Assembly (NCBI GenBank): GCA_001310715.1
Contig: BAXV01000044.1
Location: 1 to 32,517 of the forward strand
Direction: 5' to 3'
Source: Pseudovibrio sp. JCM 19062
GTDB taxonomy: Bacteria > Pseudomonadota > Alphaproteobacteria > Rhizobiales > Stappiaceae
DNA: 32,517 nucleotides
The position numbers and the translations under genes are program-made. The notes beneath the pieces were generated by a model. It ran no database searches. It was not told the DNA's origin and worked only from the letters and a program-made list of their open reading frames with translations. Positions 2,485-31,544 of the stretch are shown here, one piece after another. The number at the start of each line of letters is the position of its first letter. The stretch's first letter is position 1.

Positions 2485-2814
2485 ATGGCCTTTTCTGAGA
2501 TCACTGAAAGCTTGGATAAGAAAGCTAATGAACTCTATAAAGCCCGAGTTCCTCGTGACTTGTGTGACTTTGAGTTGGCGATGTGGTTTAGGCTGCGTAA
2601 AGCTGCCCATATTGGTGCAACACAAATCCTTAACCTGTCCAGCAGAGCAATTCGTTCTTTAAGCAAACTTGATGACTACCACCTTGAACTGTTGTCGAAG
2701 GGAGGGTGGTTGTCTTTCGGCTTAACGCTCGACGATTTTGACTTGCATAAGGTACTTGGCGACAGGAACAGCGCAAATATGTTCGTGGAGGATATTGCAG
2801 TTTCAGAGCATTAG
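2485..2814 (+). CDS. FlhD-like transcriptional activator subunit (SetD/AcaD-like)
   Basis: Protein of 109 residues starting immediately after the transglycosylase stop codon, with ACAGGG as binding site. By eye, residues 28-90 (FELAMWFRLRKAAHIGATQI onward to the LSFGLTLDDFDLHKVL segment) follow the E. coli FlhD pattern: an opening hydrophobic helix, A-x-x-x-L-x-I/L-S, L-x-x-L, a second helix ending in a small loop, and the hydrophobic strand V/L-x-F-x-F/L. FlhD-type proteins form dimers that join FlhC in a D4C2 activator. In SXT (SetCD) and IncC (AcaCD) the complex is the master activator of conjugation. The gene is intact, and its stop overlaps the GTG of the next gene (TAGTG). Confidence 0.7.
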   Translation: MAFSEITESLDKKANELYKARVPRDLCDFELAMWFRLRKAAHIGATQILNLSSRAIRSLSKLDDYHLELLSKGGWLSFGLTLDDFDLHKVLGDRNSANMFVEDIAVSEH

Positions 2815-3671
2815 TGCGCAACTACTGGCAGGTTCTGAAGATTGCGGTTGATCATGATATAGAGCTTGCCAGTCAATTGTGTGGTGTGTCTCCAGCGATA
2901 ATGCAGAAGCTTTCAATGGTGTCGCTTTCTGAGTTGTGTGTTATCGCGAGTAAGGTGGACTGTAAGCTATCGTTACGCTTTTCTGAGCAGATCATCTTTG
3001 ACATTCTCAATTTACAAAACCGCAAGCAGGAAGAACCAGTAAGGTGCTCAACTCCTGAACTGCTGGACGCCGAAGCGGATCTTGTTGCAAGAAAAACATT
3101 GCAGATGTTGACCAGCTGGATAACGAGGTTCGGTAATGCCTCAGGAGAGATTTCGGCGCGGGTCAATGCCGACATGTCCAGCTGGAAAAAGAAAGCTGTG
3201 GCTCGGTATCTTCTCGTTGCGGGGTTCTCTATCGACGCAGTAATCCCACACGTTGGTATGGGTGCCACTTCTATCAGAAATCTATATGACGACATGAGTC
3301 CGGAGACGGTACGGTTGGCGGAGGCCAGGAAGAAACGTGGAGACTACAAAAACGTTCTTTGCAATGCTGGTGATCTAATGCTCGCCGGTTTGGGGGCGCT
3401 CTGTTATCGCACGTATTTGTGCGGGGATATCGAAACAAAAGGTATCGATATCCCGACCTTGTGCAGGGCTTTTAAACTCTATACAGCCTCGCTCCGAGAG
3501 TGGCCTGCACGGTCGGATGGATGGCGCATTAATGCGATGCCGGTGCTGCATTCTTTACTGCTTCATATCGTCAATTCTGATGCATGGATAGATGAATGCC
3601 CTTCATGCGAAACAGATTATTACATGTATCTTGATCAGAGCAGCTACAAGAGCTGCCCCTTCTGCAAATAG
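2814..3671 (+). CDS. FlhD-FlhC fusion activator (SetC/AcaC-like, with an extra FlhD-like domain)
   Basis: Protein of 285 residues, about 90 longer than typical FlhC. It starts at the GTG overlapping the previous stop. The C-terminal part, from about residue 85, is FlhC-like: a helical domain with RNLYDDM (where FlhC has LYKEL), AFKLY (where FlhC has AYRLY), and a terminal zinc site C262-x2-C265 ... C281-x2-C284. Residues 3-66 (from NYWQVLKIAVDHDIELASQL to the SLRFSEQIIFDIL segment) match the FlhD pattern a second time. The protein therefore looks like a D-C fusion partnered by a separate D subunit. Its expected role is activation of transfer promoters. Identity to known SetC/AcaC needs alignment; the zinc site and operon position make the FlhC part secure. 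Confidence 0.75.
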   Translation: MRNYWQVLKIAVDHDIELASQLCGVSPAIMQKLSMVSLSELCVIASKVDCKLSLRFSEQIIFDILNLQNRKQEEPVRCSTPELLDAEADLVARKTLQMLTSWITRFGNASGEISARVNADMSSWKKKAVARYLLVAGFSIDAVIPHVGMGATSIRNLYDDMSPETVRLAEARKKRGDYKNVLCNAGDLMLAGLGALCYRTYLCGDIETKGIDIPTLCRAFKLYTASLREWPARSDGWRINAMPVLHSLLLHIVNSDAWIDECPSCETDYYMYLDQSSYKSCPFCK

Positions 3672-4524
3672 AAACCTGGGCAGTTGATGGCACTTGATCA
3701 TCCGTAGCAAGTCTATCCTGACATTTGTTGATGCACCTATCTTCACAGAAGTTCCGACTGTGATCCAACAGGTGTGTCTACGGTTCATGCTTGGGAAGTG
3801 ACCGGGACGTTTAGACTGGTAAACCAAATCAATAGTGTGCGTTATGGTTTTAAGCAGGTTTGCAAGCAATCAATGGCTCGCCCCAATACCGACGTAAATT
3901 CGATCTCGGTTGGCAGAAATTTTTCAATCATAAACGATTGCTTTTCTCATGATGCTTAGGGCGAACGACTTTTGAACAGTGCCAATGGGGTTGAGGCATT
4001 ACCTATGACCCTCTGCTTTCCTAGATAGTGTTTCAGTCCTTCATGTCCTGACAGACAAGAGCCTGCGCTGCAATATTTGAGCGGTGTGGTGTGTAAATCT
4101 TCTAGGTGAAAAGCGAAATCGTAGGGCGCTGGATTTGCAAGTTTTGATGTCATTCGTAGACACTAACTTGCTGCAGATATGCTCATTGCAAAGCGTGCTA
4201 TCCGCGCAGGAAGATAGCTAAGATGAGGCAGGCAGGATGTGTATACATAATACCATAATAGGACATTTCACTCCAAATATATGTGGAAATATATGGACCA
4301 AATACAAATAGAAGCAGACAAACTAACTACATCTAGTTTTAGTTCCAAATATATGTGGAAATAAGCCAACGGAATACGAATGTATAGGCTGAATACATAC
4401 TTTCAGTAGCTTAAGTTCCACATATATCTGGAAATTATGCTAGAAAAATGGAAAAATACCACCTAAGGTTTATCTGAGTAAATATGGTTGTAATTTCCAG
4501 ATAGATAGTAATGTGGAAAATGAA
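3672..4524. other. Gene-free region, oriT candidate
   Basis: These 853 bases hold no convincing gene; a 61-codon open frame at 3774-3959 and some minus-strand frames lack binding sites and family features. The left 500 bases show little structure apart from an inverted repeat GCTATC-N10-GATAGC at 4197-4218. The right 250 bases become AT-rich and carry the regularly spaced palindromes described separately. In IncC and SXT elements oriT lies in a non-coding stretch beside mobI, and the gene that follows here is MobI-like. I infer that oriT and the mobI promoter are here. No nic site can be named from sequence alone. Confidence 0.4.
4271..4518. repeat. Array of palindromic TTCCA-N8-TGGAA sites
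   Basis: Three palindromes of the form TTCCAnATATATnTGGAA start at 4271 (first base changed to C), 4343 and 4416, so they are 72 and 73 bases apart. A fourth, looser pair of half-sites (TTCCA at 4495-4499 and TGGAA at 4514-4518, 14 bases apart) overlaps the ribosome binding site of the gene starting at 4525. The spacers of the first two units also resemble each other (AATACAAAT / AATACGAAT, and ACAT...TAG before the next site), so the unit is about 72 bp long. These look like operator, iteron or oriT accessory-protein sites. Confidence 0.75.
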
Positions 4525-7188: not shown

Positions 7189-8098
7189 ATGATTTCAGGT
7201 GGGAGCTTAGCGGAGTTAGGTAAGCTAGCTGATAAACAAACGACAGATCGCATTCTGTGTTTGCCTGTGTTGGATGTTGAGCCCAACCCCAATCAGGTCC
7301 GAAAAGAGTTTCGGGATATTGATCAACTTGCCGACTCCATTCAGCAAACAGGACTACAGCAGCCTATTCTGGTGTCAGCTAAGAAACAAAACGGCAAGTA
7401 TACAATAGTCAATGGCGAAAGGCGTTGGAGAGCTCATGTTGCGCTGAAGAAGGAAACGATTAAAGCTATCGTCAGCGCTGCTCCGGGCGAAGCTAAGCGC
7501 ATCGAGATGGAGCTAGTTGAGAACATACAGCGAGATAATTTAACACCTCAAGAAATTGGCAATTCACTTGCTAAGTTGGTTTCTTTGGGGTTCAAGCATC
7601 ACGAAGTTGCGAAAATTATCGGGAAGAACCGAGTATACGTGGTGAAACACCTCAAGCTTAACGAGAACCCAACGCTGGTTAAGAAGTTTGCTGAGCGCGG
7701 AGTGTCAGACGCTGAAACTTTAGCTGATCTCGTTAAAATACATAGGGAGTCACCTGCGCTGGCTGAGCAACTGCTCCAATCAACTGACACTGATGTTTTA
7801 AAACGAGAGCATGTACGCACAAAACTGAAACAAGCGAAGTCAACAAAAGTGAACAGAAAGGCATCCGTTGTTGGCAAAGGCATAACAAAAAAAGCCTGCA
7901 TCCCCGAAAGAGATGCCGCAAGTGCGTGTTATCGTTGCTGACGCTGATGTGCGTTATGATGCGGTTTTAGATTTGAGGCAGCTAAGCAGTCGAGAAGGAT
8001 TTGTGCGGGTAAGAAGAGAAAATACAAAACACTCCTTTGAAGTGTCATGTGACTGCGTTGCGGTGGTAGGCGTCTCTCATCAAGCAAGCGCAATTTGA
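7189..8098 (+). CDS. ParB-family DNA-binding protein (frame interrupted in an A run)
   Basis: ATG 7189 with AAGG just before it is the start. Residues 25-115 are a ParB/sulfiredoxin-type domain with GERRW at 76-80 and ENIQRDNLTP at 111-120, followed by a helix-turn-helix at about 133-158 (HHEVAKIIGKNRVYVVKHL). The first frame stops at 7941, but an extra A in the seven-A run 7887-7893 hides a continuation, KKPASPKEMPQVRVIVAD ... to 8098, giving about 303 residues. ParB proteins bind centromere-like sites and use CTP through the GERR region. No ParA gene lies next to it, so it may be a regulator or may work with a distant ParA. It ends the operon starting at mobI. Confidence 0.8.
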
Positions 8099-8164
8099 AA
8101 ACTCCCAAAAAAAACGGAATATTCAAAAAGATTTGAAAACTCCGCTAAAAATAGTAATTTTCAA
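8093..8164. repeat. TTTGAAAA repeats behind the parB-like gene
   Basis: ATTTGAAAACTCC occurs at 8093-8105 (overlapping the parB-like stop) and again at 8131-8143, 38 bases later. An inverted TTTTCAA lies at 8158-8164 and a related ATTCAAAAAG at 8121-8130. The cluster directly after a ParB gene could be a centromere-like binding site, or merely AT-rich repeat sequence. Confidence 0.4.
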
Positions 8165-8168
8165 AAAC

Positions 8169-18827: not shown

Positions 18828-19231
18828 ATGCAAACTATTGAAAAAAATGTTGGAAAAAAAGGCACCTGAAGATGCTGTCTTTTGTCGCAATGGCTGCAGT
18901 GCTTTTCATCGCAGTACAGCCTGACGTGGCGCATGCGGGTACTGGTGGTACTGAATTTGATGAAGTTTGGGAGGCTCTCAAAGACTGGACTGAGGGTACT
19001 TTGGGTCGAGTTGTAGCAGGCGCAATGATCCTTGTTGGGATCGTTGGTGGGGTTGCTCGACAGTCTCTTATGGCGTTTGCCGTAGGTATCGGTGGCGGGA
19101 TGGGGCTCAACTATTCCCCGACTGTCGTGGAATCTATCATGACCGCAACAATCACAGGGATCTCCTCAACTCCTGAGATTGTTAGCAACACCGCTGGCTT
19201 GATCACAGCCAGCGTTGGCCTTGGGATGTAG
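18828..19231 (+). CDS. traA: TraA, conjugative pilin precursor (frame interrupted near the start)
   Basis: ATG 18828 with GGAG upstream. Literal translation stops after 13 codons; adding one A to the seven-A run 18841-18847 joins MQTIEKKCWKKRHLK to MLSFVAMAAVLFIAVQPD, giving a normal prepilin with a basic N-region. The leader ends AHA, and mature pilin begins GTGGTEFDEVW, about 97 residues. It has two hydrophobic segments (VVAGAMILVGIVGGVA and SLMAFAVGIGGGMGL), as in F-type pilins. If the frameshift is real, a start at ATG 18872 would still encode the whole leader core. TraA is polymerised into the mating pilus. A terminator follows at 19320. Confidence 0.9.
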
Positions 19232-19319
19232 CAGCTGTCTGCAAAATCCCGCAGTCCTGATGAAAGGAGGAGGTAAACAGTAGTAGCATTGTTTTATACA
19301 CGTTAATGAACCCAACGAG

Positions 19320-19350
19320 CCCGTTCGCATGAAAGTGCGAGCGGGTTTTT
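19320..19350 (+). terminator. Rho-independent terminator after traA
   Basis: CCCGTTCGCA (19320-19329) pairs with TGCGAGCGGG (19336-19345) with one G-T wobble around a six-base loop, followed by five T. It closes the traL-traA operon and separates it from the duplicated unit. Confidence 0.85.
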
Positions 19351-19367: not shown

Positions 19368-19437
19368 CACCTTCCCAAGGTAACGGCTGCAGACCGATAG
19401 AATTGTGCCGATAATCGAAGCGTAGAGAGGTGCTGAG
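19368..19437 (+). promoter_or_regulatory. Leader of the first giant-protein gene (copy 1 of a direct repeat)
   Basis: These 70 bases from CACCTTCCCAAGG to the start codon are repeated almost exactly before the second copy (25059-25129). They hold a possible -10-like GATAGAAT, no clear -35 hexamer, and the binding site GAGAGG 8 bases before the ATG. The arrangement fits an activator-dependent promoter carried along in the duplication. Confidence 0.6.
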
Positions 19438-22400
19438 ATGAGAGTTTGGCGATTAGGCCTGTTGTCGGGGGTGGCTACAATGCTGGCCCTTACCAGCGCG
19501 CAGGCCGATCTTCTGGAGTACAGTTTTACTGATACTCAGGGAGAACAGAAGGTACTGCAGCCGGGGAGCGAATACGCAAACCCTGTCAGTGATTTGACGT
19601 TTACTCTTAGTGGTGGTGTGGACCGGAAAGTCCGGTTGCTGATCCGTGATGGGGAAGGGGCGGTTGTCTCGTCTGCGTCAAGTGAGCTGCTTGGGGCAAA
19701 CGACCGTATTCTGGTCGATGGTGGCGAGTATTACGGCGACCAGCTGCAGCTACCGGTGCCAGCAGATGGAAGCTATGAGTTTGTCGCACAAATCATATCC
19801 ACTGATGGGACGGTGGTTTCCGAGCAGATAGATCCGGTGCGGGTCCACACAACGCCGCCGACGTCTGGTGGGTTTGATGTTGTGCAGGTGGACGAAACTG
19901 AAGTTCCAGGATTTCCTTATCGATTGATCGGTGGCAACTATCTCAGCAATTTCAACATTAATGGGATTGTGTCTGACATTCCTCTTTCCAAAGTTAAACT
20001 CACGGTTAAAGACCTGGTTGGAAACGTACCAACCCGAACGGTAGACGGTGAAGTTCTGGAAGGCAGTGTAGAATGGAAACCTGAAGCACTCTTCGATAGT
20101 GAGGTTGAAAGCACTTTTGAATTAACCGCGAATGTGTGGGATCAGGCAGGAAATGTTAAGCGAGTATCGGAAACGTTTTATTACGATAAGTCAGCGACAA
20201 AGCGTGGAGATTTTGAACTGTTCGCGCTTTACGACCCGGACAATGCTCCCATTACACCTTTGCTGAACAACAGTAAATTTGAGGGCTTTGTTCCCTACAC
20301 AGATGGAATGCAAATAGCGCAAAACCCAATCCGCCTCCTTGCGAGAATACCGAAAGATAACTACAGAGATTTTACGCCATTTGGTCTTGGGAGGACAGTA
20401 GATTGCTATAATGATTGCTTATCATCAACACCGTTTTATATGGATGATGAGTATGTCTACGTAGAAGAGCTTGATCCAATAAACTTCTTCGAGACTGGCC
20501 CTACTAGTATAAGGTTAAAGACGAATGATAGATTGCGTAACAGGTCTCTACGCTACTTTGATGTAGATGTTTCGGAAGACACTGCGATCTCACCAGTGGC
20601 CACGAAATTCAGATTTGGTATTAAAGGGAGTGACCAGCTTTACGGCAACTCGTGGATTGGTCTTGATAAAAAAGACTGGATCGTTGATCGCGCAGTTGTG
20701 ACTGTTGAGCCTCGCCCTTATCGTCAACGTATTACTGTAGATAACAAAAGCATTCCAGGTATGGAAGCGAATGTTGTTATTGAGCCAAATACCAGCCAAG
20801 TCACTGTAGATCTTCCAGAATATAGTCCCTACGAAGATCATACGAATGACCCTGTGACCTATCGCACCGTTTTCCAAGCTATGCATATTCATATGATTTG
20901 CCAAACCAGCTTAAATCACGGCGAATTGATTTCATTATCGATTCAAACTTCACTCCGCCAGAAGTCAATGAAGTCAATGTCCTACAGCAGGATAAAGAGA
21001 TTCATGTTGAGGTAAACGAAGCTGATAGCTATCTGGTACGAACGACTGGTCATCGGGGCAAATGGTTTGTTGATCCAAACAAATCTAAGCTGGAACTTCG
21101 CTCATCTAATGGTGATTACGTGCAGGTCCCATTTATCCGTGAGTTGCAACACACCCACTGGAAGCGCCGCTTTATCTACGACCTCTCTAAGGTTCCGGAT
21201 GGCACCTATACGCATGTGAAGGCAACAGCGGTTGAAGCACAGAACAACAAGACTGTTCATGAGATCGCAGAAACGGTCGTAATCGACAATACCGCACCAG
21301 CTGTGCACTTCAATCTTGATGATGGCTCCGACGTGGTGTCGCTCGATGACATCTTCATCTCTGTCTCGGACAACATTGACAGCAATCCACAAATCGCTTC
21401 GGTTCTGCTGACCGGTGGCCCTACGAATGATCAGATCAACCTGCCAGTGCGCGAAGTGGCCGGTGGTCAATACCAGCTTGAGTACCCAATCCTCTTCCCA
21501 AGCTTTGAACCGAACAGCGGTTATTCGGCGGTTGTTGTGGTCAGGGATGAACACGGGAATACCGGCGAAGAAGCTTTAAGCTTTAATTACCAACCACACC
21601 AGATCACCTTGGAAGGTGGGTTTGACAGCAAGTTCTACATTCCAGCAGTGGCCACGGAGCTGCTGCACAAGGACGGGCGGCGCCTGATTGAGACCGAGCC
21701 GCTTACCCTTGCTGACGGTGCGCCGGTCACAGGGACGTATGACGTTCTGGCAACGCTTCGCGGGGATGCGCCATCAGCCTATATCATCAATGGGATGAGA
21801 ATTGAGCCTGGACAAACGCTGGCGATCTTGAGTGATCATGATTTCTCTACGACTTCAGGAAAGCTCAGCATTGGTGCGTTCCCTGCCGAGGAAGGCATTG
21901 AGGCACAGCGAACATTCTGGTGATGACCACAGCCCCCAACTCTCCGATCTTGTCTGCCGAGCTGACAACATGGGTTGGTCGGGCCAACTTGAGTTCCTCC
22001 AGCTGGACGGTGAAACAGGTTTTGGATCCTGTTTCGATTCAGGCCTCACCTGCTCCGGGCAATCCATGCCGTTTTACTTCCACTATGGAAGACGCTTTCC
22101 AATCTGATCCGATTGACGATCCTGTTTGTGAGTTTGTCTGGACAACCATCCCAGACGAGAGCGAGCGGGTTCTAAGTGAGAACGGTGAGTTCAAGATGAC
22201 CCAGATCGAAGGCGTGGCCTTTGCTTTGGGAACACAAACCATCACCTATGAAATGGCCCTTTATGGTGGTGACGGATCGCGCATTGTGGTGGGTACTGGG
22301 TCGCAGGATCTTGAAGTCGTTTCTGCCAATGGTTCTGTATCACTGGCGCCAACGGAAAATCTGAGAACGGTTCATCGTGGCATTGAGAATATTGCTCTTC

Positions 22401-24993
22401 AAATGAAGCAAGTGGATGGCGGTTCTTGTCCTCTGACCATGGATAGTGATCAGGCGATGCGGCAAAACAAATGCTTCTTCGAGTGGACCGATATTCCGGT
22501 TGGCCTGCAACAAAACTTCTACTCACACCCATATCTGACGGGATTGTTTGCAGATGAAGGCATATATCCAGTGCAATGGCGCGTGAGCAAGTTTGCGCCG
22601 TCGGGCAAGCGCGTCACTCTCAATGAACAATCCTACGACATTGAGGCTGTTAATCCTCCGGCGCCACAGGTCGAAATGGCCGAAGTTGGAGACAATGGCA
22701 GTATATTCTTCGCGCCCATGGGAGGCAGGCGTACCAGAGACATTGTAGTCACATCGCCAGCATCCAAGCTGCTGATTGATGTTGAGCGGGACAATGTCAC
22801 GGTTTTCAATGAAGTGTACAACCTGTCTTCTGGAGCGAGCAATCGGGTCTACTTGTCTCTTGAAACCCTGCCTTTGAACCTTTGGCAGGAACAGCAGTTT
22901 GATGTGTCCGCGCGCTATGCGGAGCTGGCTGATGTTAAGGGGACTGCCTCCATCACAGCAGTTGGCGTACCAGCTGAAACGGTTCGCCCTTACATCTTTA
23001 CTGAGCAGCGGGATGCGGTAGACACCGAGTTCCTACCGCTGACGGTTGACCTGCGTGATACGCAAAACTTCAATGGAGAGTATGACGCAGCCACGATGGG
23101 GCAGTGGGAGGCAAGGGTTGTATATGACACTCTTGAAGGTCCGGTTGCGCTTTCGAACTTTGAGCCGATGACAGGTGGCAGTCTTACCACCTCAGTCGAT
23201 ATCTCGGGTTTGGGAGCTTCCAGTCTACGCTTGTTTGCTGAAGCAAGATTGCTGAGTGAACATCCCGGCTATCAACGTATTGAGAGATCAGTCACCCCAA
23301 CGTTTGTTGCTGTTCTACGCGGCAATGAAATTGACGGTAGCGTTGTCAGTCGTGCCTTTAGCGGGCCTGCTCCTTTGAGCACCTATTTTAAGCTTGATGT
23401 AGCAGATCACTTGGACCGGCGTGCTGTTGGCGATGTAGTTTGGCAGGTCAGCTATGACACTGGAGGAACATGGACAGATTTTGTACCTGAAAGCGAGCGT
23501 AAGAAGCTGCAATTCCATCAGACATTTGATGTGGGCAGCTACTTGGTGCGCGCAAAGATTACAAACAGAAACTCGGGCGCAGTTTCCCATACTGAACAAA
23601 CGAGTGTTACAGCCTATGAGAGGCTCGATGTGGAGCTGAGCGGCCCAAGCTCGGTCGTCGTTGGTTCGAAGGGTACGGTCCTGGCACAAGTTACCAAGAA
23701 TGGCGTGGCGGCACCGAAGGACGGCTACGTTCTTGAATGGTCAACGGATGGAGGCGAAACCTTTGCAGCCGGTTCAGGAGAGGAATTGGTTGTTGAAGGG
23801 ACAGAAGAAGGCGTGCAGCGGATCCATGCGCGTGTACGGGCCGTAGAAGCTCCTGCAGAGGACCGGTATGCCTATTCTGTCGACCGGCACAATGTTGGTA
23901 TGCGGCGCGTCAAGGAAGCGCGGGCAACGCTTTACGGATCAAGAAAGCTTGAGATTGGTCAGACCTATGAGTTTCTGCGCGCTTGAAAGCCCCCTATCGT
24001 GACATGAACGTTGCCGTTAAGGGCGAGTTCGCGTTCCCGGATGGCACCGTAGTTGAAGGGGAGACTGGTAGCTACACCGTGCGTGAAGAAGACACGCAAG
24101 ATGGCAAGATTGCTATCAAATACACAGCTTGGCTTGAAGGCTTCAAAGCTGAAACCTCCAAGACCGTTGAGATGGTTGCGCGGGTCTGGGCCTATAAGTG
24201 GCCGGAATTTGTATTTGGTGTGAGTGCGGATACGAACCAAGTGCCTACGACGGTCAAAGCCAGCGTTCGGGCTTTGGGCGATACCCGCAACCTGGAAGAG
24301 GCGGTGTTTGAATGGATCCTGCCGGATGAAGCAAGTGATGTCATAGAGCGTGGTGATCGGTATCGGACGTTTGTTATTGACGAGCCGGGAGACCATGAGA
24401 TCGTTGCCAAGATCAGTGATGCGCGGGGTAATGAGACTGTCTTGCGAGAGACCTTGAGCCTTGAACCGGCACCTGACTACGAGGTGGGGATGACGTTCAC
24501 ACCGTCCAACAAGCATTTGCGTGCTCCATTGGGTGTGTTCCTGCGTCCACAGGTCTCGGGCGGACATCCGCGCGACCGTGTGGCCTCTTACACCTATTCT
24601 GTCAATGGAGAGGTGCTGGAAGCTAAAGGCTCATATGCGAAGACGGAACTTGAAGCTGGCGAGAACATGGTCGAGCTGGAGGTTCTGACAAGGATGGGCG
24701 TTGTGGCAACGGGAGAGCTTGTGATCCCTGTTGCGGAAAACCAGCCGCCTGTCTGTGATCTTGAGATCACGGATACCTCGCGGTCGTGGATCGGCAGGGC
24801 CAAGTGTGAGGATGTGGATGGCCGTGTTATCAAACACAACTGGAAGCTTGATGACCGTGACGTGTCGGTCAGTGGTAGCCGTATCACCATCTCCAAGTTT
24901 GATCAGGAGCATCTGCCACTGGTCACGCTGAGCGCGATTGATGATGCGGGTGCAGTATCAGAAGAGGTCACTGCTTCTCATCCCGTGAACTAG
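19438..24993 (+). CDS. Giant exported Ig/PKD-like protein, copy 1 (three frame interruptions)
   Basis: Joined protein of about 1,850 residues. Bases appear missing near 20880, 21903 and 23970; each repair restores alignment with copy 2. The signal peptide (about 1-23, ending SAQA) is followed by a conserved N-terminal domain (about 24-140, with LQPGSEYANPVSDLTFTLSG), which I take to be DUF4165-like. Next come many beta-rich Ig-like modules (recurrent IDNTAP, FYYDKSAT, DAHGN/DEHGN-type turns) and C-terminal PKD-like modules (NQPPVCDLEIT ... CEDVDGRV). A C-x3-C loop lies near residue 322. No LPXTG, autotransporter or membrane anchor is seen. Large Ig-like proteins occur between traA and dsbC in IncC-type elements; I infer an extracellular role in mating contact. 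Confidence 0.8.
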
Positions 24994-25016
24994 AAAACGG
25001 TTACACCAAGACAAAG

Positions 25017-25045
25017 AGCCGGGGCAATTGCTCCGGCTTTTTTTT
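25017..25045 (+). terminator. Terminator of giant-protein copy 1
   Basis: AGCCGGGGC-AATT-GCTCCGGCT, a nine-base-pair stem with one wobble, followed by eight T, 24 bases after the stop. The same hairpin with the same surroundings follows copy 2 at 30706-30736. Confidence 0.92.
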
Positions 25046-25058
25046 ATTGAAGTGTTGG

Positions 25059-25129
25059 CACCTTCCCAAGGTAACGGCTGCAGGCCGATAGAATCGCGTC
25101 GGTAATCGAAGCATAGAGAGGTGCTGAGA
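25059..25129 (+). promoter_or_regulatory. Leader of the second giant-protein gene (copy 2 of a direct repeat)
   Basis: Nearly identical to 19368-19437, with a few substitutions and one added A just before the ATG. It starts 13 bases after the terminator of copy 1, so copy 2 has its own promoter region and ribosome binding site and is not simply read through from copy 1. Confidence 0.6.
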
Positions 25130-28100
25130 ATGAAAACTTGGCGATTGGGCTTGCTGTCGGGGGTGGCCACGTTATTGGCTCTCCCCAATGCGCAGGCCGA
25201 TCTTCTGGAGTACAGTTTTACCGACACTCTGGGAGAACAAAAGGTGCTGCAGCCGGGGAGCGAATACGCAAACCCTGTCAGTGATTTGACGTTTACTCTT
25301 AGTGGCGGCGTGGACAGGAAAGTCCGGTTGCTGATCCGTGATGAGGAAGGGGCGGTTGTCTCGTCTGCGTCAAGTGAGCTGCTTGGGGCAAACGACCGTA
25401 TTCTGGTCGATGGTGGCGAGTTCTATGGCGAGCGTCTTCAGCTGCCGGTGCCTGCGGATGGAAGCTATGAGTTTGTCGCACAGATCATATCTACAGACGG
25501 GACGGTTGTCTCTGAACAGGTAGATCCGGTGACCGTTCATACAACACCACCGACCTCCGGTGGGTTTGATGTTGATCAGTCAAGGCCAACTGAGGCACCG
25601 GGTTTTCCCTATCGCTTGATTGGAGGGAGGTATTTTTCCTCGCTTCAGATTAATGGGATTGTCTCGACAATACCTTTGACCACTGCCGAAATTGCAGTGA
25701 AAGACATGGAGCAGACAAGCTAATTGGGATCATTCAGACTCCGATTTTGGAGGGCACTGCATTTTTGCAAGCAAAAGACTTGTTTGCATCGGGGGCAGAA
25801 AGCACTTTCGAATTGGTTGCAAAGGTTCGGGACATTGCTGGGAACGAGAGCGAAATCTCAGAGATGTTCTACTATGACAGCGCTAGTAATAAACGTGGAA
25901 GCCTTGAAGCCTTCGCGATTTACGATCCTGAGAATGCGCCTGTTCAACCTTTGCTGAATGATAGCAAATTCGAGGGTTTCGTACCTTTTACCTCGGGCAT
26001 GATAGTCTCTCAGAACCCCTTTAGGCTCTTGGCGAGAGTTCCCAAAGAAAATTACAAAGATTTTTCACCATTTGGCTTGGGATATCTTTGGGACTGCAAT
26101 AATCCATGCTTTGCGGAGGAGCCGTTTCATACGGACGATGATTTTGTTTATCTGGATACTGCAACCCCGTACACGTCCCGCGATGCTGGATTAAACAGAT
26201 TCCTGTTGTATTCTACTGATCTGGTTAGAAATCCAAATTCGAGCACTTTTGAAGTGAAGCTGTCTGATAGCACCGCAGTTGCACCAAGGATTATGGATCT
26301 GAAAGTCGGCTTTAAAGGCATCGACACTCTGAGAGGCGGGAGGCGGCTTGGTCTCGAAGAGAAAGACTGGATAATAAATCGCGCTTCTGTAACAGTTGCA
26401 CCTCGACCCTACCGACAGCGCATTATCGTAGACAACGTTAGTACAAGTGGGAATGATGCGGACGTTGAGATTGAACCTAATGAATCCATCGTTACTGTCG
26501 ACATACCCGAGTACAGTCCCTACGAATACCGACTTGAAAACAACAGAAGATACCGCACTACTGTCAGGGCAAGTCTATACGCTTGATCTACCGCTCGAAT
26601 TGAAACGGGACGATACGTATATAACTTTCGATAGCAACTTCACTCCTCCTGAAGTCAATGAAATCACAGTTTTCCGTCAGGAAAAAGAAGTCCATGTTGA
26701 GGTAAACGAGGATGATGGCGATATTGTCAGCGGAGCGACAGCGGCGGACATAAATTGGTTCGTTAGCCCAACCAAATCTAAGTTGGAGCTGCGCTCAGCT
26801 GGTGGTGACTTTGTTGAGGTTCCGTTTAAAAGCGAAGTCCAGCATACCCATTGGAAGCGCCGGTTCATCTATGACCTGTCAGAGGTTCCGGGTGGTGAAT
26901 ACACCCACCTGAAGATGACGGCTGTCGACGCGGAGAACAACACCACCGTCAAGGAAATTCCCGAAGCTGTTAGCATCGACAACACGGCGCCGACGGTCCA
27001 GTTCAACCTTGCTGACGGCATTGATGTGGCCACGCTGGACGATATCACGGTCACGGTTGGCGATGACGTTGACGACAACCCGCAAGTGGCCTCTGTGCGC
27101 CTGACGGGCGGTCCTTTGAACGATCAGATCAACCTGCCGGTGCGCGAAGTTGGCCAAAGCCAGTACCAGCTGGAATATCCGGTACTGTTCCCAAGCTATG
27201 AGGCTGGCACAGGCTACAGTGTTGTTGTGACGGCAAAGGATGCCCACGGCAACACCAGCGAAGGTGTTTTGGGCTTTAGCTACAAACCTCCGCGCATGGC
27301 TCTGGAGGGCGGCTTTGACGGCAAGTACCTCATTCCTGCTGTTGCGGCCGAGCTGGTGCACAAGGACGGCTCGCGCCTGATTGAGACGGTTCCGCTCACC
27401 TATGCAGACGGGGCACCGGTCAACGGCACCTATGACGTGTTTGCGGCCCTGCGTAGTGACGCGCCATCGGCTACATGTCAATGGTGTCAGGATCGAGCCA
27501 GGACAGACGCAGGAGATTGTGAGCAACCATGACTTTACCGCCTCATCCGGGCGGCTGAGCGTTGGGGCCTATCCTGCAGAAGCAGGGATTGAAGGCACGG
27601 CGCACATTCTGGTGATGACCACGATTGCCAACTCTCCGGTTCTGTCGGCTGAGCTGACAACGTGGGTCGCTCAGGCCAAGCTTGATGCACCGGACTGGAC
27701 CGTGCGTCAAGGCGTGGACCGTGTCCTGGTTCAAGCTTCTCCTGACCAAGGCACCCCGTGTCGCTTCACCACGTCAACGGATGAGGCTTATCAGTCAGAT
27801 CCGATCTACGGTTCCATCTGCGAGTTTGTCTGGACACAGCTTCCAGACGAGAGTGAGCAAGTTTTAAGTGACGCCAGCGATCTGGAGATGATGCAGGTTG
27901 ATGGTGTTGCCTATGCTTTGGGTCCGCAAACCGTTTCCTATGAACTGGCTCTTTACAATGGGGACGGCTCTCGCCTTGTTGTGGGCTCTGGCGCGCAGGA
28001 TCTTGATGTGGTGACGGCTGAAGGTTCTGTGTCTCTGGCACCAACGGACAGCCTCAATACAGTCTATCGCGGCATTGAAAATGTTGCTGTGCAACTGCAG

Positions 28101-30682
28101 CAGGTTGATGGTGCGGCCTGTCCACTGACGATCCATGCTGATGAAGCCGCGCGGCGCAATGAGTGCTTGGTTGAGTGGGTTGGCCTTCCGGCCGGTCTGG
28201 AGCAAAACGCGAGCTCTCAGCCGTATCTGACGGGGCGTGTGCAAGATGAAGCGTGAACAGCATTGCATGGCAAGTCAGCAAGTTCACACCGTCCGGTCAA
28301 CCGGTGCTTCTCAATGCGCAGTCCGTTGATATTGAGGCTCTCACTCCGCCAGCCCCACAAGTTGAGCTGGCCGATGGTGGGTCTTCGGATCGCATCGTCT
28401 TTGTGCCTTTGGAAGGGGATCAGGCCACAGACATTGTTGTGAGCGCACCGGCCTCTGACTTGCTGATTGATATCAAGCGCGACAGTGCCGGAATTTTCAA
28501 TGAGAAGTTCACCTTGTCGTCCAAAGATAACAACCGCGTTAATCTGGCGCTTGAACCGGAAGGCCTGCAGCTCTGGCAGGAACAGCAGTTTGACGTGACT
28601 GCCAGCTATTCGGAGCTTGCGGGCGTGGAGGGGTCTTTGAACGTCACGGTCGTTGGGGTTCCAATCGAGACTGTTGTGCCGTCTATCTCGGTTGAGCAAC
28701 GTGATGCGGTGAACACCGACTTGTTGCCGGTGACGATCAGTCTTCGCGACAAGCGCAAGACAGAGCGGGAGTATGATGCTTCTGTCATGGGGCAGTGGGA
28801 AGGACGGGTTGTCTATGACACGCCTTCCGGCCCTGTTGAGTTGACCCAGTTTGAACCGCTTGAAGGTGACACACTGGTGGCCATGGTTGATCTTTCTGCA
28901 GTCGATAAATCGAGCTTGCGGCTTTATGCGGAGGTTCGGTTGATCAGTGAGCACGCTGGTTATCAGCGTACGGTGCAGTCAGTCAGTCCTGCCTTTGTGG
29001 CGATATTGCTGGGAAATGCGATTGACGGGAATGTAGTCAGCCAGCGGTTTAGCGGGCCTGCTCCTTTGAGCACCTACTTCAAGCTGAAGGTCGACAATTC
29101 CGTTCAACGCCGCGCCATTGGCGATGTGATCTGGCAAGTGAGTGAAGATGACGGAGCAACGTGGACAGATTTTATCCCTGAACACGAGCGCAGTCGGACC
29201 CAATACAAGCGTGACTTTGACATGGGAACCTACCTGGTCAGAGCACAGATTGAAAACCTCAACTCCGGCGCTATATCCTACACCCCGCAAACGCAGGTCA
29301 CCGCCTATGAGGAACTGGATGTAGAGCTGACTGGCCCCAAAACGGTGATGGTTGGCTCCGATGGCACTCTTGTTGCGGAGGTCTCCAAAGATGGGGTGGC
29401 CGCGCCAGAAGAGGACTATGTACTTGAATGGTCCATGGATGGCGGCAAGACCTTTGCAGCCGGTTCAGGAAATGAATTGGTGATTGAAGGGATTGACGAA
29501 GGTGTGCAGCGTTCATGCGCGTGTGCGTTCTGTTGAGGCCCCTGCAGATGACCGGTATGCTATATGGTCGACCGGCACACCGTTGGTGTACGCCGTGTCA
29601 AGCCAGCACGGGCAACGCTTTATGGATCCAGAAAGCTTGAGATCGGACAGACCTATGAGTTTTCTGCGCGCCTTTATGCTCCGTACCGGGACATGAACGT
29701 CGCCGTCAAAGGCGAGTTTGTGTTCCCGGATGGCACCGTAGTTGAAGGGGAGAGTGGCAGCTACACCGTGCGTGAAGAAGACACACAAGATGGCAAGATA
29801 GCGATTGGATACACGGCATGGCTCGAAGGCTTCAAGGCTGAGACCTCCAAGAGTGTTGAGCTGAGCGCGCGGGTTTGGGCTTATGAGTGGCCGGACTTCA
29901 TGTTTGGCGTGAGCACGGACACAAATCAGGCTCCGGCGACAGTAAAGGCCAGCTTGCGGGCCGTGGGCGATACACGCAAGTTGGAAGAGGCGGTCTTTGA
30001 ATGGGTACTGCCGGATGAGGCTTCCCAGATCGTTGATCGCAGTGAGCGGTATCGCACGTTCGTCATCGAGAAGGCTGGAGATTACGAGATCGTTGCCAAG
30101 ATCAGCGATGCGCGGGGCAATGAGACTGTCTTGCGAGAGACCTTGAGCCTTGAGCCGGCACCGGCCTACGAGGTGGGGTTGTCGTTCACGCCGTCCAATC
30201 CGTACTTGCGTGCGCCATTGAGTGTGTTCCTGCGTCCGCAGGTCTCGGGTGGTCACCCACGCGACCGTGTGGCCTCTTACACCTACTCTGTCAATGGGGA
30301 GGTTCTGGAAGCCAACGGCTCTTATGCACGGGCAGAGCTTGAGGCTGGCGAGAACATGGTCGAGCTGGAGGTTATGACCAAGATGGGCGTTGTGGCAACG
30401 GGAGAGCTTGTGATCCCTGTTGCGGACAACCAGCCCCCGGTCTGTGATCTTGAGATCACGGAAACCTCCCGCTCGTGGATTGGCAAGGCCAAGTGTGAGG
30501 ATGTGGATGGCCGCGTTGTCAGACACAACTGGCATGTGGACGGCTACAAGGTGTCTGTCAGCGGAAGCCGGATTAGCATCTCCAAGCATGAGCAGGAGCA
30601 GCTGCTTCTGGTTACGCTGAGTGCCATTGATGATGCCGGGGCGGTCTCGGAGGAGGTTACACTCTCCCATGCCGTGAACTAG
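25130..30682 (+). CDS. Giant exported Ig/PKD-like protein, copy 2 (six frame interruptions)
   Basis: A tandem paralogue of the preceding gene, about 1,850 residues when joined. Apparent shifts lie near 25710, 26560, 27474 (two bases), 28251, 29512 and 29561; every repair restores colinearity with copy 1. Signal peptide about 1-23 (ending NAQA), the same N-terminal domain, Ig-like modules and C-terminal PKD-like modules are present in the same order. The first 150 residues and the last 340 are very similar to copy 1. Residues about 155-480 differ strongly, although the C-x3-C loop near 321 (DCNNPC) is kept. Start is ATG 25130 after GAGAGG. It probably functions like copy 1, with altered binding specificity. 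Confidence 0.8.
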
Positions 30683-30705
30683 AAAACAGTCACACCAAGA
30701 CAAAG

Positions 30706-30736
30706 AGCCGGGGCAATTGCTCCGGCTTTTTTTTTT
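30706..30736 (+). terminator. Terminator of giant-protein copy 2
   Basis: The same AGCCGGGGC-AATT-GCTCCGGCT hairpin as at 25017, followed by nine T, 24 bases after the stop codon. The remaining 116 bases to dsbC are AT-rich and probably hold its promoter. Confidence 0.92.
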
Positions 30737-30852
30737 ATTGAAAGTGTGAAATCAGAACAAAAAAATACACTCATCGCAAAATGGGTACAGAGCTGCGCAA
30801 GCATCAAATTAAAACTGGCTAATGTGCTTCCAGATTAACTGGATCGGAAATT

Positions 30853-31544
30853 ATGCGCAGATTGCTATTATCGTTATGTTGCTCATTGGCTATCTCAAGT
30901 GCGAGTGCGCTGGAGTTCAGCCCGGATGAACCACCCATTAACAGGATAGTTGAGTTGCCGGTAAACGGCTCAGAGCCATTGAAAAAGAAGGTAAAATTTT
31001 CTTCATATCGTCGAATGGTCGTTTTGTTTTGTCGGGGCAAATTATCGACGTATGGCAACGTAAACCTCTCGATACATTTGAGCAGATCAGAGAAGCAGCA
31101 CTAAAGCTCGATGTAAGGGCATATGGTGTTGAGCCTGACGATTTGAACACAATTACAATTGGTGCAGGGCCAAAAGAGGTGATTATGTTCACTGATCCGC
31201 TATGCAGTATTTGTCACAGTGTTTTGGATGAGGCCAAAGACCTCATGGAGGAATACACCTTCAAGCTCATTCTGGTTCCTGCGCTTGGCAACCGGTCCAA
31301 TCAGCTCATCCGCTCATTGTTCTGCTCTGACACTTCGAATGAAGAGAAAAGAGACCTTTATCTGCGCAAAGATATTGCATCTGTAAACAATGAGGGAACT
31401 TGCGACAGCAAAAGGCATGACCAGACGCTGACATTCGCTCAAATGATGGGCGTTAATGGAGTACCATTGATTATTAATCCAATGGGTACTGTCATTCGCG
31501 GACGCCCACCCGTCCTCAAACCATTTTTGGAGGGAAGCGAATGA
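30853..31544 (+). CDS. dsbC: DsbC-like periplasmic disulfide isomerase (one frame interruption)
   Basis: ATG 30853 with GGA upstream. An A is missing near 30984; repair joins EPLKK to EGKIFFISSNGRFVLSGQII, a DsbC dimerisation-domain feature, giving about 231 residues. The signal peptide is residues 1-19 (LLLSLCCSLAISSASA). The catalytic domain has C-S-I-C in FTDPLCSICHSVLDE, a later C-x-C-D-like pair of Cys (FCSD ... TCDS) and NGVPLIINPMG, the cis-proline loop. It isomerises wrong disulfides in periplasmic transfer proteins. It is encoded directly before traC, as in SXT/IncC elements, and overlaps it (ATGA). Confidence 0.9.

What the first reader, a model, noticed from the sequence alone, without database searches (positions are those of the whole stretch)
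19368..30736. Tandem duplication of an entire 5.7 kb transcription unit for a giant surface-type protein inside the tra operon region
Leader (19368 and 25059), coding frame and terminator (25017 and 30706) are all repeated head to tail, so two paralogues of about 1,850 residues each have their own promoter region and stop. Related elements are expected to carry one Ig-like gene between traA and dsbC. Two retained, diverged copies suggest selection for two adhesin or receptor-binding variants used during mating, for example for different recipients.
Basis: partly seen in the sequence, partly recalled or inferred. Interest (0 to 1): 0.8.

Follow-up and report, generated by a model that had tools for sequence, protein, structure and literature searches.

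The report
Tandem twin mating-surface protein genes
A conjugative element carries two diverged, head-to-tail copies of a giant Ig-like protein gene where the relatives examined carry one, with ends kept alike and middles different, so it may make two versions of a protein that helps cells mate.

Summary
The duplication is real. Two units of about 5.7 kb (19368-25046, 25059-30740) lie head to tail between traA and dsbC of a MOBH, IncC/SXT-like transfer region, each with leader and terminator. They are 70.5% identical in DNA, too diverged to be an assembly echo. Shared codons show purifying selection (dN/dS about 0.20, no internal stop).

Correction: neither copy is open as written. Copy 1 changes frame 3 times, copy 2 six times; traE, dsbC and traC are broken too, so sequencing error is likelier than decay.

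The closest relative found (Pseudovibrio sp. Ad37) has one intact gene. In the middle copy 1 groups with Ad37; at the ends, the 3' end above all, the copies are most alike: a gene-conversion pattern. Family-wide, residues about 145-600 look swapped as a cassette (IncC type 1 versus 2: 25% identical there, 99-100% from residue 784 on).

Best reading: two variants of the secreted conjugation-aiding Big protein (IncA/C ALG87338.1; RSP/RSP2 of R27). Different recipients are untested; TraN is the published specificity factor. Tandem arrays of shorter Ig-like genes exist on IncHI1B plasmids, so this is a new variant of a known kind.

The parts
18872..19231 (+). traA-like pilin ORF just upstream
   Evidence: 67% identity to IncC TraA over 107 aa
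19317..19348 (+). terminator hairpin after traA, separating unit 1 from traA
   Evidence: 14-pair stem then T-rich tail; a like hairpin aligns in Ad37
19368..19437 (+). leader of unit 1, with likely ribosome-binding stretch
   Evidence: 64 of 70 nt identical to leader of unit 2; 25-nt pattern found only twice
19438..24993 (+). Big gene copy 1 (DUF4165, Big_3_2, Big_3_3; PKD just below cut-off), broken as written by 3 frame changes
   Evidence: Pfam; frames; closest to Ad37 in the middle
25013..25042 (+). terminator of unit 1
   Evidence: 13-pair stem plus T tract
25059..25129 (+). leader of unit 2
25130..30682 (+). Big gene copy 2, the more divergent paralogue, broken as written by 6 frame changes
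   Evidence: DUF4165 and Big_3_3 hits in two of its pieces; frames; dN/dS
30702..30731 (+). terminator of unit 2
   Evidence: 13-pair stem plus T tract
20000..20870 (+). most variable part of copy 1 (about residues 190-475; inside the family's swappable region, residues about 145-600)
   Evidence: 40-56% aa identity to copy 2; family R2 mean identity 24.6% against 47-52% elsewhere
25690..26560 (+). corresponding variable part of copy 2
   Evidence: 54.4% to copy 1 and 57.6% to Ad37 (R2)
30801..31544 (+). dsbC-like gene downstream (broken as written)
   Evidence: 43% to IncC DsbC; broken

Best explanation
The element carries an old, diverged tandem pair of the Big-protein gene that IncC-type MOBH elements keep between traA and dsbC. 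Shown: two units, each with leader and terminator; purifying selection on both; ends more alike between the copies than to Ad37; middles diverged, with copy 1 the Ad37-type gene. Inferred: recombination between the two units (gene conversion or unequal crossing-over) keeps about 0.4 kb at the 5' end and 0.7-1.2 kb at the 3' end alike, while the middle stays different through selection or lack of homology. Both proteins are secreted by the transfer system and act on pilus, flagella or the partner cell to help mating, as published for the IncA/C and R27 homologues. The shared signal/DUF4165 end and C-terminal end would serve export and attachment, the variable part would contact the target, and two versions would widen the conditions or partners under which mating works. 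The frame breaks are most likely sequencing errors.
For: Unit structure. Selection: 1805 codons, pS 0.589, pN 0.200, dN/dS 0.20, no stop but the shared TAG; against Ad37 dN/dS 0.12 (copy 1) and 0.17 (copy 2). Mosaic: copy1=copy2 sites are 20% of informative sites inside 21222-23719 and 39% outside, reached in 0 of 2000 permutations; trees put copy 1 with Ad37 in R4 and R5 (support 0.93, 0.97) and copy 1 with copy 2 in R6 (0.957). Synteny. Function of homologues: PMC8730810 (abstract, sections 11-13) and PMC6764697 (passages). Errors: copies 1 and 2 have 3 and 6 frame breaks in about 5.55 kb each, seven other genes about 4 in 5.6 kb; 12 of these 13 are deletions of 1-2 bases.
Against: The R1 tree does not pair the copies; it puts copy 2 nearer Ad37 and P0002 (0.895), although R1 identity is highest between the copies (87.0% against 81.0 and 83.7), so the 5' tract is less firm than the 3' one. 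Copy 2 has twice as many breaks as copy 1 and the longest branch of its clade in R4-R5, so slow decay of copy 2 is possible. No promoter was recognised in the leaders. No binding, export or transfer data exist for this element. A study of IncC plasmid pMS6198A found no effect of the Big gene on conjugation at 37 C (told in PMC8730810 discussion). The variable parts of copies 1 and 2 are 54% identical, more alike than typical cassette swaps (about 25%), so they may not differ in target.
Confidence: 0.6

Rival explanations
1. Copy 2 (or both) is a decaying duplicate: a past duplication now a pseudogene.
For: Neither copy is open as written; copy 2 has 6 frame breaks against 3 and the longest branch of its clade in R4 and R5.
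Against: No in-frame stop in 1805 shared codons but the final one, and dN/dS about 0.2; copy 2 against Ad37 dN/dS 0.17; traE, dsbC and traC are broken too, which a transferring element could hardly afford.
Confidence: 0.15
2. The pair works together like RSP and RSP2 of R27, as two interdependent partners, not as alternative specificities.
For: R27 has two Big proteins; RSP2 export appears to depend on RSP (PMC8730810 abstract and discussion). Both copies keep like ends.
Against: RSP and RSP2 differ in size (155.4 and 86.75 kDa; PMC11268884 passages) and lie at different loci; here both are full-length paralogues. Relatives examined manage with one.
Confidence: 0.25
3. The variation is driven by attack or recognition (pilus phages, protists, immunity of an animal host), not by choice of recipient.
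For: TraN is the published recipient-specificity factor of IncA/C and IncH plasmids (PMC13104618); the family-wide cassette pattern does not say what is avoided or bound.
Against: No such attacker of these proteins turned up in what I read; nothing was tested here.
Confidence: 0.25
4. Neutral duplication or dosage: two copies by chance, not yet lost.
For: Unequal crossing-over between direct repeats makes and removes copies easily (general knowledge); Ad37 has one.
Against: 32% amino-acid divergence with purifying selection on both is not expected of a short-lived neutral copy.
Confidence: 0.1
5. Assembly artefact joining two strains' alleles of one gene.
For: The record looks error-rich and seems to be itself a 32,517-base contig; a mis-join of two haplotypes could place diverged alleles in tandem.
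Against: The junction is a complete terminator plus leader with no partial gene; the copies are most alike at their ends, which two independent alleles need not show.
Confidence: 0.1

Closest known systems
Pseudovibrio sp. Ad37 Ig-like gene (L006:5450-11011, P0001)
   Same: traA-like ORF before, dsbC-like ORF after, same domains; copy 1 is 80-88% identical to it in R3-R5
   Different: One intact copy of 1,853 codons; the gaps on either side are about 190 and 121 nt, so no second copy or large relic fits
IncC orf1832 / orf1847 Big protein (ALG87338.1 of pKAZ3)
   Same: DUF4165, Big_3_2, Big_3_3, PKD; between traA and dsbC in L002; about 42% identical at the C-terminal end
   Different: One copy; its two types are alternatives in different plasmids, differing mainly over codons about 100-610
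RSP and RSP2 of IncHI1 plasmid R27
   Same: Two Big proteins in one MOBH element, exported by means of the transfer system, aiding conjugation (PMC8730810)
   Different: Different sizes and separate loci, not tandem twins; C-terminal end of RSP homologues about 30% identical to copy 1
Tandem arrays of about 800-aa Ig-like genes on IncHI1B plasmids (NZ_CP098133.1: 3 genes; NZ_AP028315.1: 2 genes)
   Same: Head-to-tail Ig-like paralogues; in NZ_CP098133.1 the two compared are 72% identical, 87-89% in the last two stretches
   Different: Half the length, not between traA and dsbC, 20-27% identical to the first 475 residues of copy 1 (which also holds one IncHI2A plasmid)

Membership tests
IncC-type Big protein (traA-Big-dsbC) | DUF4165 at the N-terminal end | tested here: met
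   Copy 1 E 4.9e-33; copy 2 E 2.2e-33
IncC-type Big protein (traA-Big-dsbC) | Big_3_3 domain (residues about 578-724 in Ad37) | tested here: met
   Copy 1 E 4.2e-37; copy 2 E 6.9e-37
IncC-type Big protein (traA-Big-dsbC) | Big_3_2 domain after DUF4165 | tested here: inconclusive
   Copy 1 met, 27.9 bits against 23.3; the matching piece of copy 2 was not scanned; Ad37 itself is just below cut-off, 22.2 bits
IncC-type Big protein (traA-Big-dsbC) | gene lies between traA and dsbC | tested here: met
IncC-type Big protein (traA-Big-dsbC) | one intact frame of about 1,800-1,870 codons (2,050 in Hydrocarboniclastica) | tested here: not met
   Frames broken as written in both copies; intact relative exists
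IncC-type Big protein (traA-Big-dsbC) | single copy per element | tested here: not met
   Two units here; one in each of the 14 genomes with strong matches
IncC-type Big protein (traA-Big-dsbC) | secreted and aids conjugation | not testable with these tools
   Published for pKAZ3 at 25 C (PMC8730810 section 12)
RSP/RSP2 pair | two Big proteins in one MOBH element | tested here: met
   MobH 204.9 bits against cut-off 200; two Big genes
RSP/RSP2 pair | unequal partners at separate loci | tested here: not met
   Equal-length tandem units
SXT/IncC-type MOBH element | SXT-type TraD | tested here: met
   TIGR03743, 688.7 bits against cut-off 366
SXT/IncC-type MOBH element | MobI | tested here: met
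   PF19456, 87.2 bits against cut-off 26.6
SXT/IncC-type MOBH element | integrase or IncC replicon | not tested
   The contig is only 32.5 kb; neither was sought specifically

The most novel reading that the evidence does not exclude
IncC/SXT-like elements carry a giant secreted mating protein with a swappable recognition region, a second specificity layer beside TraN; this element stores two versions in tandem, with recombining ends that can make hybrids or drop one copy, so one donor can meet two kinds of partner or condition.
Probability: 0.27. Interest if true: 0.75.

Novelty: new variant of a known kind. Interest (0 to 1): 0.5.

Why it matters
Big proteins aid conjugation of major plasmid groups, yet in the papers seen here how they choose a target is not settled. 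A region that is swapped between otherwise near-identical proteins, and an element that keeps two diverged versions side by side, point to the part worth testing for binding. If the pair has two targets, mating contact in these elements is set by more than TraN.
Full report
What is there. Between a traA-like pilin ORF (18872-19231) and a dsbC-like gene (from about 30800) lie two head-to-tail units. Matching blocks sit 5688-5692 nt apart. Unit 1 has its leader at 19368-19437, coding span 19438-24993 and terminator 25013-25042; unit 2 has its leader at 25059-25129, coding span 25130-30682 and terminator 30702-30731. A further hairpin after traA (19317-19348) separates unit 1 from traA. Over 5733 aligned columns the two are 70.5% identical. 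The surroundings are a MOBH transfer region: MobH relaxase, SXT-type TraD, MobI, TraK, TraB and TraV, and TraL, TraE, DsbC and TraC by comparison with named plasmids. No drug-resistance gene was among the families matched in the ORFs that I scanned; not every ORF was scanned.

Frames. Copy 1 runs through four ORFs and copy 2 through six of at least 100 aa. Compared with the intact gene of Pseudovibrio sp. Ad37, copy 1 has 3 and copy 2 has 6 frame-breaking length differences. In seven other genes compared (traE, traK, traB, traV, traA, dsbC and the start of traC; about 5.6 kb), traE has 1, dsbC 2 and traC 1 inside the gene, and traK and traB none; the remaining listed differences lie at the ends of the stretches that I cut or, in traA, near its start, where I cannot judge them. 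Of these 13 internal breaks 12 are deletions of 1-2 bases and 1 is an insertion. The relaxase match begins at position 117 of the profile and traL is found in two frames. An error-rich record is therefore likelier than decay of these two genes, but reads are needed. One search lists the window's own fragment on a contig of 32,517 bases, so the window appears to be the whole record; no genome is held for it.

Selection. In 1805 codons where both copies are in frame (codons next to frame changes left out), amino-acid identity is 68%; differences at codon positions 1, 2 and 3 are 415, 298 and 888; pS is 0.589, pN 0.200, dN/dS 0.20, and the only stop is the shared final TAG. Against Ad37 dN/dS is 0.12 for copy 1 (1826 codons) and 0.17 for copy 2 (1789 codons). 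Synonymous differences are near saturation in parts, so these ratios are rough.

Relatives and copy number. The gene lies alone between traA and dsbC in an IncC plasmid (1843 aa, L002), a Vibrio alginolyticus plasmid (1838 aa, L003) and a Hydrocarboniclastica marina plasmid (2050 aa, L001). In Pseudovibrio sp. Ad37 a single 1,853-codon frame fills the place. With the C-terminal alignment A1, 35 of 227 genomes in the genus of L009 (Vibrio sinensis) had any match, 10 below E 1e-30, each with one such match; in the order of Ad37 2 of 397 had any match and 1, Ad37 itself, a strong one; in the class of L009 11 of 369 had any and 1, that genome itself, a strong one. Weaker matches were not counted as the gene. 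Seven genomes searched with the whole Ad37 protein had one gene each, two of them listed in two pieces. Together these are 14 distinct genomes with a strong match, none with two; five of the 14 have shorter frames of 1,410-1,449 aa and so are more distant. In the family of Ad37 2 of 87 genomes matched, Ad37 itself and one over 23 residues only; its TraB was found in 1 of 16 genomes of the genus, itself. In PLSDB the C-terminal piece of copy 1 matched 2954 records at 3004 places; of the 60 rows listed 59 had one place. The exception, NZ_CP025236.1, holds two equal-scoring copies in opposite orientation, not a tandem pair. The other extra places, about 50, were not looked at one by one. Against a simple single-copy picture: the N-terminal piece matched 3042 PLSDB records at 7265 places, and many listed IncHI-sized records have 2-4 places; in the three that I opened these are separate genes of about 800 codons.

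Mosaic history. With Ad37 as third sequence, 1861 informative sites split into 559 copy1=copy2, 867 copy1=Ad37 and 435 copy2=Ad37. Copy1=copy2 sites are depleted between 21222 and 23719 (20% against 39% outside; 0 of 2000 permutations as extreme; permutations ignore linkage between sites). Protein trees by region: R4 and R5 pair copy 1 with Ad37 (0.93, 0.97) with copy 2 next and P0002 outside; R6 pairs copy 1 with copy 2 (0.957); R2 and R3 put copy 2 outside copy 1, Ad37 and P0002 (0.925, 0.921); R1 does not pair the copies but puts copy 2 nearer Ad37 and P0002 (0.895), although identity is highest between the copies there. DNA identity between copies is 90% over 423 nt at the 5' end, 65% over 3955 nt in the middle, and 83% over 1247 nt at the 3' end. 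So the duplication, or the gain of copy 2, looks older than the split of copy 1 from Ad37, and the ends, the last third above all, were made alike later.

A swappable region in the family. IncC type 1 and type 2 genes are known alternatives (orf1832 and orf1847; PMC6872532, passages). Here they are 20-40% identical in aa in each 100-codon window from 101 to 600, 87% in the next, and 97-100% in all later windows; codons 1-100 are 99% identical. Among 25 family members (near-duplicates included; 300 pairs) mean identity is 24.6% in residues 150-560 and 47-52% in the other five regions. Of 18 pairs that are at least 80% identical in R5 and 85% in R6, 13 are at most 35% identical in that region and 5 are 66-100%; the 18 fall into six groups and include near-duplicate rows. 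I saw no statement of this family-wide pattern in the listings or the passages that I opened, which is a narrow check. Copies 1 and 2 are 54% identical there, so they are not an extreme case of this swap. Copy 1 and Ad37 are 59% identical there and 86-88% in R4-R5, while Ad37 and P0002 are 73% there and 65-72% in R4-R5, so the region moves on its own in this lineage too.

Function. The IncA/C homologue was found in the secretome, and its loss lowered conjugation at 25 C, not at 37 C, without changing motility (PMC8730810 section 12); the same paper's discussion tells of a study that saw no effect for the pMS6198A gene and explains it by the use of 37 C only. R27 has two such proteins, RSP and RSP2, that bind flagella and pili (PMC8730810 discussion; PMC6764697 passages). 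For recipient choice the published factor in IncA/C and IncH is TraN (PMC13104618: title, start of abstract, passages; PMC11493245 passages on surface exclusion). By inference the two copies here are two versions of the secreted mating aid. Whether they have two targets is open.

Precedent for tandem Ig-like genes. IncHI1B-type plasmids carry head-to-tail Ig-like genes of about 800 codons: three in NZ_CP098133.1 (two of the three compared: 72% identical, 87-89% in the last two stretches) and two in NZ_AP028315.1 (29%). Tandem Ig-like genes in MOBH plasmids are therefore not new as such; full-length twins at the traA-dsbC place are what I did not find elsewhere.

Verdict. A real, diverged tandem pair; frames broken in the record; new variant of a known kind.

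Noticed in passing
window: relaxase (from 9513), traL and traE (15.1-15.95 kb), dsbC (30.8-31.5 kb), traC (from 31.5 kb): Other transfer genes are also broken or truncated as written, mostly by short deletions: the record looks error-rich.
   Followed up: partly
family alignment (L002, L003, L004, L005, L009, P0005, P0008-P0015), residues about 145-600: A region swapped as a cassette between otherwise near-identical Big proteins, in six groups.
   Followed up: partly
L063:2551-10041 (NZ_CP098133.1): Three head-to-tail Ig-like genes of about 800 codons beside parAB on an IncHI1B plasmid.
   Followed up: partly
NZ_CP025236.1 61370-66853 and 74886-80369: Two equal-scoring IncC Big genes in opposite orientation on a rearranged plasmid.
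   Followed up: no
window 4250-4500: By eye, a repeated AT-rich motif (about AAATATATGTGGAAAT) upstream of the mobI-like gene, perhaps an origin or regulator site.
   Followed up: no
window 8093-8167: Two copies of a 38-bp AT-rich repeat downstream of the parB-like ORF, perhaps a partition site.
   Followed up: no
window 2814-3671: ORF ending in a CPxC...CPxC pair; place and ending recall AcaC/SetC-type activators (recalled); only a below-cut-off DUF2857 match (13.4 bits against 36.8) in Pfam and none in NCBIfam.
   Followed up: partly
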